Assembly (NCBI GenBank): GCA_022792835.1
Contig: JAAWBT010000083.1
Location: 1-41,689 of the forward strand
DNA length: 41,689 bases
Direction of reading: 5' to 3'
Origin: Lachnospiraceae bacterium
GTDB taxonomy: Bacteria > Bacillota > Clostridia > Lachnospirales > Lachnospiraceae
Shown here: piece after piece, positions 32,570-41,689 of the stretch
Layout: each line of letters starts with the position of its first letter
Numbering within the stretch: position 1 is the stretch's first letter
Program-made: the position numbers and the translations under genes
The notes under the pieces: generated by a model
Databases searched by the model: none
What the model saw: the letters and a program-made list of their open reading frames with translations, nothing else
What the model was told of the DNA's origin: nothing

Positions 32570-32696
32570 CTGATTTCCCCATTCCTGTCTGCAGCCCCAA
32601 AAATCCCCTTTTTGATCTCAGAAAAAACCTCCCAGGGATTGAACTTTCCCACAAATAAGTCTATCATATCATAAGTCTGTGGAAATGGGTAGTCTG

Positions 32697-32760
32697 CACT
32701 TGAGTTTCCTTGTGTTTGTTTTTCGAAAAATAATGGAAGAATCTCAAGTGGTTTTTTGTT
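32697..32760 (+). terminator. hairpin with T-rich tail near the end of the EamA remnant
   Basis: CACTTGAG (32697-32704) pairs with CTCAAGTG (32743-32750) over a long loop with further TTCC/GGAA pairing, then GTTTTTTGTTTT on the plus strand. No plus-strand gene lies close upstream, so its use is unclear. Confidence 0.45.
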
Positions 32761-33450
32761 TTGTTTTCAGGCCGGGGCGTGGGTCTGTCCCTCCGCTTCG
32801 GCAGACTTGTGTGCCGATCACCCCTGTCAGAATGAGAATGGTACAGGCCACCTGATAAAAATAGAGGGGTTCTTTCAAAAACAAGACTCCGGCGATCACC
32901 GCTGCCGGCGTTCCTGCATTAAACCAGGCCGTTGCCTTGAGGGCAGTCATATGCTGCAGCATGTAGCCCTTCAGGATTCCTACAACAAAGGTTCCAAAAA
33001 ACCCAAAAAACAGAACTGCCGCCACAAACTTTCCCTCCTGAAACGCTGCCAGAACCACCGGCAGCTCTATGACATGGAAGCCAAACTGGAAGGCCAGAAC
33101 AATCATCGTAATCCCAAAAGAAATTGCGCAGGAGGCAAAGCTGATCTCCGCAGCAGAATACTCCTCCTTCAGATACCGGATAATCACGCCGTTCAGCGCT
33201 TCCATAAGAAAGGTTGCTGACAGGAATAAAAGTCCCCTGATATCAAACCCCCGCACACTGTCAGTGGAACCGATGAGGAGCATAGCAGGCCGCGCTTCCC
33301 TTTTCCTCTGTAATGTACATGAAGCACTCCAGCCCGCTGAAGCACAAAATTAATGATCACAGATAATAGATATCTGGCCCCGATAATCACTAAGGGAATC
33401 GCATATGCGGCAGATATTTTGCTTACCGCAGAGATTCTTTCTCCCTGCTG
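32744..33450 (-). pseudogene. EamA/DMT transporter remnant with internal deletion
   Basis: The C-terminal half is intact in one frame (32744 to about 33283). It has five helices with LMEALNGVIIRYLKEEYSA, FFGFFGTFVVG, MTALKATAWFNAGTPAAVIAGVLFLKEPL and TGVIGTQV, the second EamA repeat. In another frame a short N-terminal piece remains (about 33300-33440: SKISAAYAIPLVIIGARYLLSVIINFVL...HYRGKGKR). About 80 residues of the first repeat between these pieces appear to be missing and the frames do not match. A working ten-helix transporter cannot be made from this. Confidence 0.7.
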
Positions 33451-33696
33451 TCCGATTTTCTTGCCATGGACGGCTTCTGGGCCATTGTACCTTATTCCAC
33501 CATCTGTGCCCTTCCCTCTTCCGATTCCATACAGATCTATGAACTGACGGATGCACCTCCGGACCGCATCTGTTATATTCTGGAACACAGGGACAAAAAA
33601 CTGGCAGACCATTACAGCTTTGTCTGCCAGATTCTTGAAGAACTGTTGAACGATAAAGATTTTATGAAAACCTATGATTTTGTGCCCCTCACATAA
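33420..33696 (+). pseudogene. C-terminal remnant of a LysR-type regulator
   Basis: An open frame (about 75-90 codons to the stop at 33696) reads SLLSDFLAMDGFWAIVPYSTICALPSSDSIQIYEL, then a tail with RICYILEHRDKKLADHYSFVCQILEELL. This matches the end of a LysR effector-binding domain. The N-terminal DNA-binding part and most of the effector domain are absent, and no start signal is seen. It abuts the EamA remnant in opposite orientation, so one deletion or rearrangement may have removed the ends of both genes. Confidence 0.55.
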
Positions 33697-33719
33697 AAAA
33701 CATTATTTTCAAATCCTTT

Positions 33720-34574
33720 TCACCCTTTGTCGCTCTTTTTATGATCCCGCTCAATCCTGATCAACCGGAAACGCTCCCCTTTGCGATATCCAAAGCAACG
33801 CATCCTTGCGCTGAACCGAAACTTCATAATCGTTCTGTCATGATAAATAGAATTGCAAAACCAGTCCCTCTCCCCAGAGGATGGGGTATACTTTTTATAT
33901 TCCAGACCGTCATCCAGGCCAATGCTTTCCCATGATTCATGCTTCACAAATTTGTCTAAGGTCCCCAAAAGAAGATGGTATTCCTCTCTTTCTAAATACT
34001 CTGCCCCATATTCTTTTTCTAGCAAGGAACAGTCCAAACGCGTTCCCGCATAACGTGCTTTCAGGCATTCATCCCGCTCCAGCCCCATTTGCTCTCCCAG
34101 ACATTCGACCAAATAAGAAGGACGATAGATAGAAAACACCCCATACGTGTTCCCATTCCATTCTACCAAAAGCCTGCGGTCCGAATAGATTTCTGAATCA
34201 AAAGACAACAGGCTCTCTTTTCTCTCTACCGCTTCTGCCACTGCTGTAGCTGCCAGATCTTCCTTTCCCATCCAATACGCCGTTCCATAATCATGCGCCG
34301 GTGACAGATCCCAATATGGTTCTGTCGTCATCTCCTTATCCAAGGCAATCTTCAGCCTAGTCAGTTTGTCCGATCTTGGATACTGTTTCAAGTCGCCCAG
34401 TTTTTGATCTTTCGTAACCTGGCATTTATAAAAATCTGCAATTTTCCGGATTTCTCCGCTTTTCTGGCTGCGCACCAGTCTAAAACACTGCAGATTCGCC
34501 TCCAGGCTCTCTAAAAATTCATCTACACTTTCAAACTGCCCATACAAAGATCTCTCGTTCAATATAAACTTCAA
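33720..34574 (-). CDS. uncharacterised protein, third gene of a DUF262-like/ATPase cassette
   Basis: This is a 284-residue soluble protein that I do not recognise. It begins at TTG with a GGTGGTGAG upstream, three bases past the ATPase stop, so it is coupled to that gene. It is rich in charged and aromatic residues, with no membrane segment and no clear nuclease or ATPase motif. Notable stretches are LVEWNGNTYGVFSIYRPSYLVECLG in the middle and a C-terminal arginine-rich part (FRFSARMRCFGYRKGERFRLIRIERDHKK) that could bind nucleic acid or the ATPase. It could be the effector of the cassette; that is inference. Confidence 0.75.
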   Translation of the reverse strand: MKFILNERSLYGQFESVDEFLESLEANLQCFRLVRSQKSGEIRKIADFYKCQVTKDQKLGDLKQYPRSDKLTRLKIALDKEMTTEPYWDLSPAHDYGTAYWMGKEDLAATAVAEAVERKESLLSFDSEIYSDRRLLVEWNGNTYGVFSIYRPSYLVECLGEQMGLERDECLKARYAGTRLDCSLLEKEYGAEYLEREEYHLLLGTLDKFVKHESWESIGLDDGLEYKKYTPSSGERDWFCNSIYHDRTIMKFRFSARMRCFGYRKGERFRLIRIERDHKKSDKG

Positions 34575-34577
34575 TTC

Positions 34578-35612
34578 TCACCACCCCAGAATAATATCCA
34601 AATCCTTCTCAATCTGGTCAAACAACCCATCCTGCTGGTTCTTCACATGCCCATTTTCATCCAGCAGAATCTCCACTGGTATACTTATTCTGTTCTCATC
34701 TTGCCAAAAAAAATAAATTTTTACCTTCTCACTGGCAATCTGGTCACTTCCAATACACCTGCGCAGCCCATTAAAAACATGGTCACTGTGGGTTTCCATG
34801 ATCACCTGCAGGCCTTTTTGGGCCAGAAACACGACAAATTCCATCAGTTCTGCCTGGCCGGAAGGATGCAGATGAATCTCAGGATTCTCAATCACCAACA
34901 CATCTCCTTTTTTGCAGGAAAGAGCCGCAATGATAATCTCGGCAATATAACTGACACCTGTCCCCACATTTTTAGGCCTGATATCTCTTCCGATTCTGCG
35001 ATTGCTGTAGGCCACCCGGATCAATTCTGTCCCGGGAATCTCCTCTGCACTCACCCGGTAGTCCAGAATTCGCTCCAGCCAGTAATTTACCTGACCGCCC
35101 AAGGTCAATTTTGTGCCGCCGTCATAAATAAATTCCTGCTCCTTTATCTCTTTGTCCTGGTGGCAGGCCAGATAAAAAAAGGCATATTCGCACCGGACTC
35201 CGATCTGCTCTTTTCCATCCAGAGATTTCTGATACGTATCCTCCACACCAATCCGGTCAGCCGCCAAATAACGGATATTCAGATCATTCTGAATCGCGCT
35301 CCCACTTCTTTCCTCCCCCTCATCCTCACTGAAGCATTTCCTGTATAGATAATCCTTCCCCTGATACATATACTCTGCCTCTAAACAAATCTTCTTACTG
35401 CCTGTAACCCAGTTTTTTACCTCACCAACTGTTCCGATATTCATATATTTGCCTGCCAGTGAACTGGCACTGTTCTGATACAGAGCCAGTACTGCCTGAA
35501 TCACTGTAGACTTTCCCGTAGAATTTTTTCCTGCAAGCAGCGTAAAGTTGGAAAACCTAAGCTCCGCTTCCTGAAAACATTTAAAGCCCTGTATTTTAAT
35601 ATGATGGATCAC
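34578..35612 (-). CDS. SMC/OLD-like AAA ATPase with DUF3696-like C-terminus
   Basis: This is a 344-residue ATPase of the AAA_15/21 class, starting at GTG. Walker A GKNSTGKST lies at 28-36, the ABC-type signature VGTGVSYI at about 216-223, Walker B VLVIENPE at about 238-245 with HLHPSGQAEL after it, and the H-loop ETHSDH at 273-278. The end (NGHVKNQQDGLFDQIEKDLDIIL) fits DUF3696. No TOPRIM nuclease follows, unlike OLD proteins. It starts one base after the upstream gene's stop and ends three bases before the next gene. Such ATPases are frequent in anti-phage cassettes. Confidence 0.88.
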   Translation of the reverse strand: MIHHIKIQGFKCFQEAELRFSNFTLLAGKNSTGKSTVIQAVLALYQNSASSLAGKYMNIGTVGEVKNWVTGSKKICLEAEYMYQGKDYLYRKCFSEDEGEERSGSAIQNDLNIRYLAADRIGVEDTYQKSLDGKEQIGVRCEYAFFYLACHQDKEIKEQEFIYDGGTKLTLGGQVNYWLERILDYRVSAEEIPGTELIRVAYSNRRIGRDIRPKNVGTGVSYIAEIIIAALSCKKGDVLVIENPEIHLHPSGQAELMEFVVFLAQKGLQVIMETHSDHVFNGLRRCIGSDQIASEKVKIYFFWQDENRISIPVEILLDENGHVKNQQDGLFDQIEKDLDIILGW

Positions 35613-35613
35613 C

Positions 35614-36621
35614 TTATTTTAGCCTCCTTTCTATTTCATAATGATGCCTTTGAATGTTAATAAAATTCACTTTTTCATTGTCAATATCTCTCCAGAGCCG
35701 TTCATCAGAAGTGACTTCTCCCAGTCCCCGCTGCACAGGAATCCTCATTTCCCGGCACATCCAGACCACATTATATAGATACCCCAGCACCCTTGCCTGC
35801 CATTCCTTTCCCTTCTTTTCCGACAGAGGAAAACCTGTCTGTCTTCCCCAATATGCCAGTTCTTCTGTAATCTCTCTGATATCTGCCCGCAGCTCCATTT
35901 TCCACTGTCCGCCTTTCCTCTCCAAGCAGGCAATCGTCCTGTCCAGCAAAAGCTGAAGTCCTATATTTTCTTCCCCTATATCCCAAATTTCTCTTTGAAA
36001 GACAAAGCGATACATGAGAATCCTCAGCATCATATATTGCCGGTTCAGCTTCCATCTGCTGAGAAAATCTGCAGATCGTCCCAAATCACACACCAGAGAA
36101 TCTAAAAGCCAATCCAACTCTTCTCCATACAATTGATTTCGGATTCCCTGTTCTCTTGTAAAATTCCACTTTTCAATGTATTTCCCTACCTGCATATGCA
36201 TGTATTTAGGGGTTGTATATTCAATAATTTGAAAAGAAGCCTGGTAATCATACAATAAAGAAGTAATTCTGGGAAACTGCTCTTCCATTTCCTCCAGCCT
36301 GTAACCGCTTAATTTCGGATAAAATTCCAGCTCTCCCGCCGGATAACGCCCATCTAAAAACTCCATCAGATACCGCAAATGATCACTGGTATCCAGCACA
36401 AGCAGACTCCCATCCTGCCGTTCTGAGGCATAAACCACCGGCAAAGAAAGTCCCAGAAAAACGGTTTCCAAGGTTTCAGAAATTTTCGCCATCTTTCTGG
36501 CTCTTCCAGACGAAGGAATATTCGGAAATACAACCCGTCTCTCCTGGTACATCCGATGGAGCTGATAAACTGATATTTTCTTTTCAAAGCTGTCAATATG
36601 ATTCTCTGAAAAACCGCTCAT
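35614..36621 (-). CDS. DUF262-like protein with degenerate DGQQR motif
   Basis: This protein has 335 residues from the ATG preceded by GAAGGGG. The N-terminal region (about 14-95) has the outline of DUF262, the ParB-like domain of GmrSD: a SVYQLHRMYQERRVVFPNIP opening, a helix with ETVFLGLSLPVVY (cf. piP-piyl) and SLLVLDTSDHLRYLMEFLDG where the catalytic ViDGQQRLttl...F is expected. DGQQR is replaced by DTSDH, so NTPase/nicking activity is doubtful. The middle part (IIEYTTPKYMHMQVGKYIEKWN) matches the rest of DUF262. The C-terminus (about 170-335) is a helical domain I cannot name. It is the first gene of a three-gene cassette with its own promoter. Confidence 0.7.
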   Translation of the reverse strand: MSGFSENHIDSFEKKISVYQLHRMYQERRVVFPNIPSSGRARKMAKISETLETVFLGLSLPVVYASERQDGSLLVLDTSDHLRYLMEFLDGRYPAGELEFYPKLSGYRLEEMEEQFPRITSLLYDYQASFQIIEYTTPKYMHMQVGKYIEKWNFTREQGIRNQLYGEELDWLLDSLVCDLGRSADFLSRWKLNRQYMMLRILMYRFVFQREIWDIGEENIGLQLLLDRTIACLERKGGQWKMELRADIREITEELAYWGRQTGFPLSEKKGKEWQARVLGYLYNVVWMCREMRIPVQRGLGEVTSDERLWRDIDNEKVNFINIQRHHYEIERRLK

Positions 36622-36663
36622 ATATTCCCCTTCATGCACTTTTTATGTGTTTCGTTATGATTT

Positions 36664-36692
36664 ATTATAATGGATTTTCCTCTCCTTTACAA
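36664..36692 (-). promoter_or_regulatory. sigma-A-type promoter of the DUF262-like/ATPase cassette
   Basis: TTGTAA (36687-36692) and TATAAT (36664-36669) are exactly 17 bp apart on the minus strand, about 42 bp before the first start codon. The flagellin terminator sits directly upstream. Confidence 0.8.
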
Positions 36693-36693
36693 C

Positions 36694-36732
36694 GACAAAA
36701 GCAGCCTCAGGCTATACGCCCGGCTGCTTTTG
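36694..36732 (-). terminator. intrinsic terminator after the flagellin gene
   Basis: CAAAAGCAGCC (36696-36706) and GGCTGCTTTTG (36722-36732) form an 11-bp stem with a 15-base loop. On the minus strand the stem ends in TTTTGTCG. It insulates the cassette promoter from flagellin transcription. Confidence 0.75.
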
Positions 36733-36803
36733 GATTTTATAATGAATCATCAGAACAAAGAAAGCAGATATACGCTCTGTTTCTCTGTCATCTTCACAAA
36801 AAA

Positions 36804-40659: not shown

Positions 40660-41443
40660 TTATAAATGATATTTCTGAAACATTTCCTCTAAAAAAGCTG
40701 GTTCTTTTGACAGACGGGAAATCAATTTACCCTCACCGTTCACAACCATCTGACAAGTCAGATTTAAAATTCTCTGGCTGGCATTTTTTGTTATCTTTTC
40801 TGTGATCTCTTCTGTTATTCGCTCTGTGACTTCTTCTGTTACTTCCTCTGTCACCTGCTCTGTGACTTTTTCTCTTGTTTCTTCCCATTTTTCTCTGATT
40901 CCCTCTTCAATGCCTATTCGTACTTCCCGGTCAATATACTCCCCAAGCCGCATATATCGTCCCTCCCATTTCCGACTTCGCTTCAGACCTGTGACCTTTT
41001 CGTGAATGATGCGGAGCTTGGCTTCCCCGCTCTTCTTTGCGAAAGCATCTGTAGTATTCTCCACATAACTCAGAAAATCAACCAGAAGCTTCGGCACCCC
41101 TGACGGGTTTTTTCCTTTGGTATTCAAAAATTTCTCCCGGCTTAAGTGACGTGGCATCCATCTCCGCCTGATGGAAACGGCTCCTCTTGGGAAGATTATG
41201 TTCATCCTCGTTCTGCATCTCCAGATTGTAGCCTACCTGCATCTGATCGCCAGCATAAATATCCAGCCGCAGGCTTCTATAATCTGAGCTGAACATAAGA
41301 GTCTCCTCGGCGTGGACATTGACCTGTCCCACCGGTCTCTCCAAAATGATCTCCAGGATCAAACAGCAGATCGCTTCATTCTGAAGGGCCGCACCAAACA
41401 AAAACGCATCCTTTAAGTTCAGTTCCTGAAACGGTTTTTTCAT
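40660..41443 (-). pseudogene. Rpn/PD-(D/E)XK family transposase-like nuclease, internally deleted
   Basis: The N-terminal part (41443 to about 41120) reads MKKPFQELNLKDAFLFGAALQNE, VNVHAEETLMFSSDYRSLRLDIY and YNLEMQNEDEHNLPKRSRFHQAEMDATSLKPGE, with the nuclease D and E-x-Q. The C-terminal part is in another frame (about 41130 to 40660): KFLNTKGKNPSGVPKLLVDFLSYVE, then a run of Thr-Glu-x-Ile/Val repeats. The two frames meet near 41125. Compared with intact family members, about 45-50 residues are missing at the join and the frame is shifted. A proper ribosome binding site (AGGAGG) and promoter remain at its start. Confidence 0.75.
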
Positions 41444-41515: not shown

Positions 41516-41689
41516 GGCGACCCTTCTTTTTTATATTGTTCATCACTACCATCGGTTGACAAGGACACACTCGCTCCAGTCTGCATGATTTGCCGGTGGA
41601 GTCTGGGAGTCGGAAAGAGGGGAATTTTCCCATGGGCAAGGCACTGGAACGACGCGGAGAGAGAGTAACGCACCTCATGTAGAAATTCC

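What the first reader, a model, noticed from the sequence alone, without database searches (positions are those of the whole stretch)
33720..36732. Three-gene coupled cassette: degenerate DUF262-like protein, SMC-like ATPase, unknown third protein
Seen: three genes with 1- and 3-base gaps, GTG and TTG starts on the second and third, one good promoter (TTGTAA-17-TATAAT) and an insulating terminator upstream. The first protein has the outline of DUF262 but DTSDH where catalytic DGQQR should be. The second is an AAA_15/21 ATPase with all motifs, a DUF3696-like tail and no TOPRIM nuclease. The third is unrecognised, with a basic C-terminus. Known: DUF262 (GmrSD) and OLD/SMC-like ATPases recur in anti-phage cassettes. 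Inference: an accessory defence module where the DUF262 part is a sensor or scaffold, the ATPase the switch and the third protein the effector. Decayed EamA/LysR genes next to it mark a site of past gene loss or insertion.
Basis: partly seen in the sequence, partly recalled or inferred. Interest (0 to 1): 0.82.

Follow-up and report, generated by a model that had tools for sequence, protein, structure and literature searches.

The report
Menshen antiphage operon with altered sensor
These three genes are a Menshen anti-phage defence operon whose sensor protein seems to have lost the nucleotide site that its relatives keep, and whose third protein ends in what looks like a RelE-type toxin, so it offers a natural test of how Menshen works.

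Summary
The three genes are real and form a Menshen (NsnA-NsnB-NsnC) antiphage operon. PADLOC profiles match all three (NsnA 4.3e-18, NsnB 2.8e-95, NsnC 5.3e-83). The cassette lies in a variable slot between flagellin and PAP2 genes that is empty in one same-genus genome.

Best reading: NsnB, with a nucleotide-blind NsnA, restrains a RelE-fold toxin and frees it on infection. Family is firm, effector fold likely, trigger and restraint inferred. The 2025 paper on Menshen domain polymorphism was not readable here, so priority is unchecked.

The parts
35614..36639 (-). NsnA: ParB/Srx (DUF262)-like protein with lost NTPase motifs; likely translated from the ATG at 36621
   Evidence: PADLOC NsnA 4.3e-18 over residues 9-213; alignment; model
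36379..36393 (-). DTSDH codons at the place of DGxQR
   Evidence: alignment of 23 NsnA rows
34578..35612 (-). NsnB: SMC/ABC-like ATPase with DUF3696 tail, all ATPase motifs present
   Evidence: PADLOC NsnB 2.8e-95, residues 1-343 of 344; Pfam; motifs
34050..34574 (-). NsnC residues 1-175: adaptor region shared with NsnCs that carry other C-domains
   Evidence: PADLOC NsnC; alignment A5
33720..34049 (-). NsnC residues 176-284 and stop: MAG6450-type, probably RelE-fold toxin domain
33741..33743 (-). codon of NsnC His278, predicted active-site residue
   Evidence: invariant in 11 aligned rows; pairs with HigB residue 92 at the end of two VIA ranges
36664..36692 (-). promoter-like TTGTAA-17-TATAAT
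   Evidence: consensus match only
36697..36731 (.). inverted repeat, most simply the terminator of flagellin, part of the site rather than the cassette
   Evidence: conserved beside flagellin in G010 and G004
32583..36793 (.). variable slot; replaced by 190 bp in same-genus G009
32744..33283 (-). EamA half-gene remnant inside the slot
   Evidence: Pfam EamA 4.5e-10

Best explanation
A Menshen anti-phage operon. NsnB (SMC/ABC-like ATPase) and NsnA (a ParB/Srx-fold protein that here has probably lost nucleotide binding) hold NsnC inactive through its N-terminal adaptor. When a phage product is sensed by this assembly, with ATP control resting on NsnB alone, the C-terminal RelE-fold toxin of NsnC is freed or switched on and stops translation, most likely by cutting mRNA on the ribosome, aborting the infection. 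Shown by homology and comparison: membership, linkage of the three genes, loss of the NsnA motifs in a clade, exchangeable NsnC C-domains. Supported but weak: the RelE fold. Inferred only: phage sensing, restraint of the toxin by NsnA/NsnB, inability of NsnA to bind nucleotide, ribosome-dependent cleavage.
For: PADLOC matches to NsnA, NsnB, NsnC. A-B-C contiguous in 10 of 11 NsnC loci. All three NTPase motifs missing at their aligned places in 6 of 23 NsnA rows, present in 17; PADLOC NsnA scores 49-75 bits for three clade members against 311-392 for five ordinary NsnAs scanned. One origin on the NsnB tree (100/98), sister L045 with intact motifs and the same effector type. Omega window-L010: NsnA 0.218, NsnB 0.078. 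NsnC C-domain: NF046006, phrog_8366, hhalign prob 91 to stand-alone relatives; Panacea genes adjoin 5 of 7 stand-alone loci; 47 of 50 VIA rows shown are by title toxin-antitoxin toxins. Loss of HigB H92 abolishes cleavage (PMC8265657 passage). PARIS as a worked example of an ATPase sequestering a toxin (PMC11455837 passages).
Confidence: 0.55

Rival explanations
1. A Menshen system in decline: NsnA has been freed from selection and its motif loss is decay, not adaptation.
For: NsnA changes much faster than its partners (56% identity to L010 against 76% NsnB and 78% NsnC); one clade member has all three genes broken (L089); the second Menshen locus of the same genome is also broken in NsnA and NsnC.
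Against: Five of six clade members have intact, contiguous operons in different genomes; omega for NsnA is about 0.22; the clade shares residues of its own.
Confidence: 0.15
2. Menshen with an effector that is not a RelE-type RNase: the C-domain has some other toxic or binding activity.
Against: Matches are nearly uniform in kind and cover whole toxin chains; stand-alone relatives adjoin Panacea antitoxin genes; sister NsnCs carry Gp49 domains at the same place (Gp49 as HigB-like is recalled).
Confidence: 0.25
3. A three-part toxin-antitoxin or addiction module that serves its own maintenance rather than phage defence.
For: Toxin-like C-domain; patchy spread at differing sites.
Against: Menshen systems have been shown to protect against phages (PMC10952713 passages); no plasmid or phage relative was found.
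Confidence: 0.15

Closest known systems
Menshen (NsnABC; Millman et al. 2022, recalled; described in PMC10952713, passages seen)
   Same: All three genes, their order and the NsnB/NsnC profiles end to end.
   Different: NsnA lacks FQR, DGxQR and N-GG; NsnC ends in a MAG6450-type domain. The review links a TOPRIM/OLD nuclease domain to a Menshen component; none is seen here.
Panacea (PanAT) toxin-antitoxin pairs (PMC8832971, passages seen)
   Same: Stand-alone relatives of the NsnC C-domain lie beside SocA_Panacea genes in 5 of 7 loci.
   Different: No Panacea gene is seen in the window cassette; the toxin-like domain is fused to the NsnC adaptor.
RelE/HigB/YafQ toxins
   Different: Sequence identity about 4-19% in the rows shown; no Pfam toxin family hit.
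PARIS (AriA/AriB; PMC11455837, passages seen)
   Same: ABC-type ATPase paired with a toxin; NsnB resembles AriA profiles.
   Different: No AriB-type TOPRIM; an extra ParB/Srx-fold protein; sequestration by NsnB is not shown.
GmrSD / BrxU / SspE (DUF262 enzymes)
   Same: Modest model similarity of NsnA to BrxU and SspE.
   Different: No DGQQR, no DUF1524 nuclease part.

Membership tests
Menshen | NsnB ATPase homologue, full length | tested here: met
   PADLOC NsnB 2.8e-95, residues 1-343 on model 1-344 of 345
Menshen | NsnC homologue, full length | tested here: met
   PADLOC NsnC 5.3e-83, 1-284 of 284
Menshen | NsnA homologue | tested here: met
   PADLOC NsnA 4.3e-18, residues 9-213 only, 63.7 bits
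Menshen | three genes adjacent in the order A-B-C | tested here: met
Menshen | protection against phages | not testable with these tools
   needs an experiment
DUF262 NTPases (GmrSD/BrxU/SspE) | DGQQR-type NTPase motif | tested here: not met
   DTSDH in its place
DUF262 NTPases (GmrSD/BrxU/SspE) | ParB/Srx fold | tested here: inconclusive
RelE superfamily toxins (NsnC C-domain) | RelE fold | tested here: inconclusive
RelE superfamily toxins (NsnC C-domain) | mRNA cleavage on the ribosome | not testable with these tools
   needs an experiment
PanAT toxin-antitoxin pair | Panacea antitoxin gene next to the toxin | tested here: not met
   window neighbours are NsnB and the EamA/site remnants; met only at stand-alone relatives
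OLD / Gabija (GajA) | C-terminal TOPRIM nuclease | tested here: not met
   NsnB ends in DUF3696, no TOPRIM among its Pfam hits
PARIS | AriB TOPRIM effector | tested here: not met
   no such family in the cassette by Pfam or PADLOC

The most novel reading that the evidence does not exclude
A Menshen lineage in which the ParB/Srx sensor has become a nucleotide-blind, fast-changing receptor that binds its phage trigger directly, so that ATP control rests wholly on NsnB, paired with a RelE-fold toxin shared with the Panacea toxin-antitoxin pool. The effector came first (shared with sister L045, whose NsnA is intact) and the catalytic loss followed once.
Probability: 0.45. Interest if true: 0.65.

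Novelty: new variant of a known kind. Interest (0 to 1): 0.5.

Why it matters
In Menshen the DUF262 gene is reported as required, and an NTPase role regulating a partner nuclease is suggested (PMC10952713 passages). A natural clade that keeps the operon but lacks the NTPase motifs says that this step can be bypassed, and gives a matched pair for testing it: the window type against its sister L045, with the same effector type and an intact motif. Assigning the effector to a RelE-like, Panacea-linked toxin family gives Menshen a concrete, assayable killing step with a predicted key residue (His278).

Tried and rejected
Considered and rejected: OLD/Gabija-type nuclease (no TOPRIM); active GmrSD-type enzyme (motif absent); housekeeping role (patchy: NsnC family in 5 of 61 relatives and 4 of 392 order genomes, own genome counted in both). 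Sequence kinship of the window's NsnC C-domain with Gp49-type C-domains of sister NsnCs: no support (prob 0.2 and 0.5), so the RelE claim rests on fold and linkage. LysR remnant: no LysR hit.

Led nowhere: four viral-contig scans found no relative; plasmid and phage protein searches with NsnC and with one stand-alone relative found none; PDB sequence searches gave nothing convincing for NsnA or NsnC. A second profile search for stand-alone relatives added one weak 27-residue match (G734) with no Panacea gene seen by eye and did not find the window's NsnC.

Rows and counts: the 23-row NsnA alignment is a chosen set. Left out were L047, L049, L095, L099, L100 and one L096 ORF, which all show DGxQR, and three that do not: a second weak L096 ORF (55.9 bits), the split L097 pair, and L044, whose core is missing. 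Unanchored motif counts give 2 of 6 FQR and 1 of 6 N-GG in the degenerate set; the aligned columns do not hold them, so I take these as chance matches elsewhere. Of the 17 regions fetched for NsnA-like matches, 5 show all three genes by my profiles (one of them, L089, broken), 9 show A and B only and 3 show A only. My NsnC profile is narrow: it also misses L050, whose third gene PADLOC calls NsnC.

Literature: searches with Menshen and NsnA/NsnB/NsnC listed no paper on this clade; none of these was read whole. The key paper (Li et al., NAR 2025, gkaf357), known here only from reference lists, is not held, so priority is open.

Full report
WHAT IS THERE. Three minus-strand genes lie at 35614-36639, 34578-35612 and 33720-34574, with gaps of 1 and 3 bases. 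The first probably starts at the ATG at 36621, which has AGGGGA just upstream (by eye). TTGTAA-17-TATAAT lies at 36692-36664 and an inverted repeat at 36697-36731. The repeat is 92-94% conserved beside flagellin in two same-genus genomes that hold other DNA in the slot, so it is most simply flagellin's terminator.

FAMILY. At E up to 1, Pfam and NCBIfam have nothing for protein 1, and Pfam has nothing for protein 3; NCBIfam gives protein 3 one hit, MAG6450, below its cut-off. Protein 2 is AAA_15/AAA_21 with DUF3696. PADLOC resolves the trio as NsnA (4.3e-18, residues 9-213), NsnB (2.8e-95) and NsnC (5.3e-83, end to end), which are the gene names of Menshen (the link of gene names to system name is recalled; PMC10952713, passages, describes Menshen as a DUF262 system with an OLD-type partner). 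Of 11 loci with an NsnC match, 10 hold contiguous A-B-C: window, G004, G010, G026, G035, G098, G373, G417, L010, L011. The exception, L012, holds only an 84-aa C-terminal piece. The NsnC family is patchy: 5 of 61 relatives and 4 of 392 order genomes, own genome counted in both.

SITE. In same-genus G009 the window's flanks are 190 bp apart where the window has 4.2 kb (32583-36793). G010 has a carbonic anhydrase gene in the slot, and G004's slot is of like length. In G005 a short stretch like window 33593-33681 lies close to flagellin, with no Menshen gene between. Neighbours of the clade's other intact cassettes (L010, L011, L087, L088) differ from the window's by eye. I did not look for integrases or attachment sites.

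HOW IT MOST LIKELY WORKS. NsnB and NsnA hold NsnC in check; a phage product changes that assembly; the RelE-fold C-domain then stops translation. PARIS, where the ATPase AriA sequesters AriB until a phage trigger, is the nearest worked example (PMC11455837, passages). In ordinary Menshen, mutation or deletion of the DUF262 gene abolished protection (PMC10952713, passages); in this clade its nucleotide role seems dispensable. Sensing, restraint and cleavage are inferred.

NOVELTY. Menshen is known. The pseudoenzyme clade and this effector assignment were not seen in the listings searched, but the paper on Menshen domain polymorphism (NAR 2025, gkaf357) is not held, so effector variety at least may be in print. 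Hence: a new variant of a known kind, of middling interest, with a sharp test attached.

Noticed in passing
L044:8291-11313 (own genome, contig C25): A second Menshen locus in the same genome: NsnB-like ATPase of 377 aa open, NsnA split in two ORFs with the FQR-to-DGxQR part missing, third gene only 170 aa.
   Followed up: partly
L061:1468-3128: A stand-alone MAG6450-type ORF next to an RRXRR/HNH gene (IscB-like by recall) instead of a Panacea gene.
   Followed up: no
window 41547-41689 and L044:11204-11442: A short repeat shared by the window's end and the DNA beside the second Menshen locus, 81-94% identical.
   Followed up: no
window 40660-41443: Overlapping ORFs in two frames near the contig end that look like a split Rpn/PD-(D/E)XK-type gene (by eye; family name recalled).
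   Followed up: no
L048:7295-10445, L050:3090-6554: Same-genus genomes hold a different Menshen branch (DGLQR NsnA, 250-aa third protein that PADLOC calls NsnC in L050).
   Followed up: partly
L088:14293-15411: A protein with a sub-threshold TIR_2 match a few kb from a clade member's cassette.
   Followed up: no
L052:275-1036, L053:10453-11238: NsnCs that end in DUF4160, a domain of unknown function, at the place where others carry Gp49; perhaps another toxin kind.
   Followed up: no
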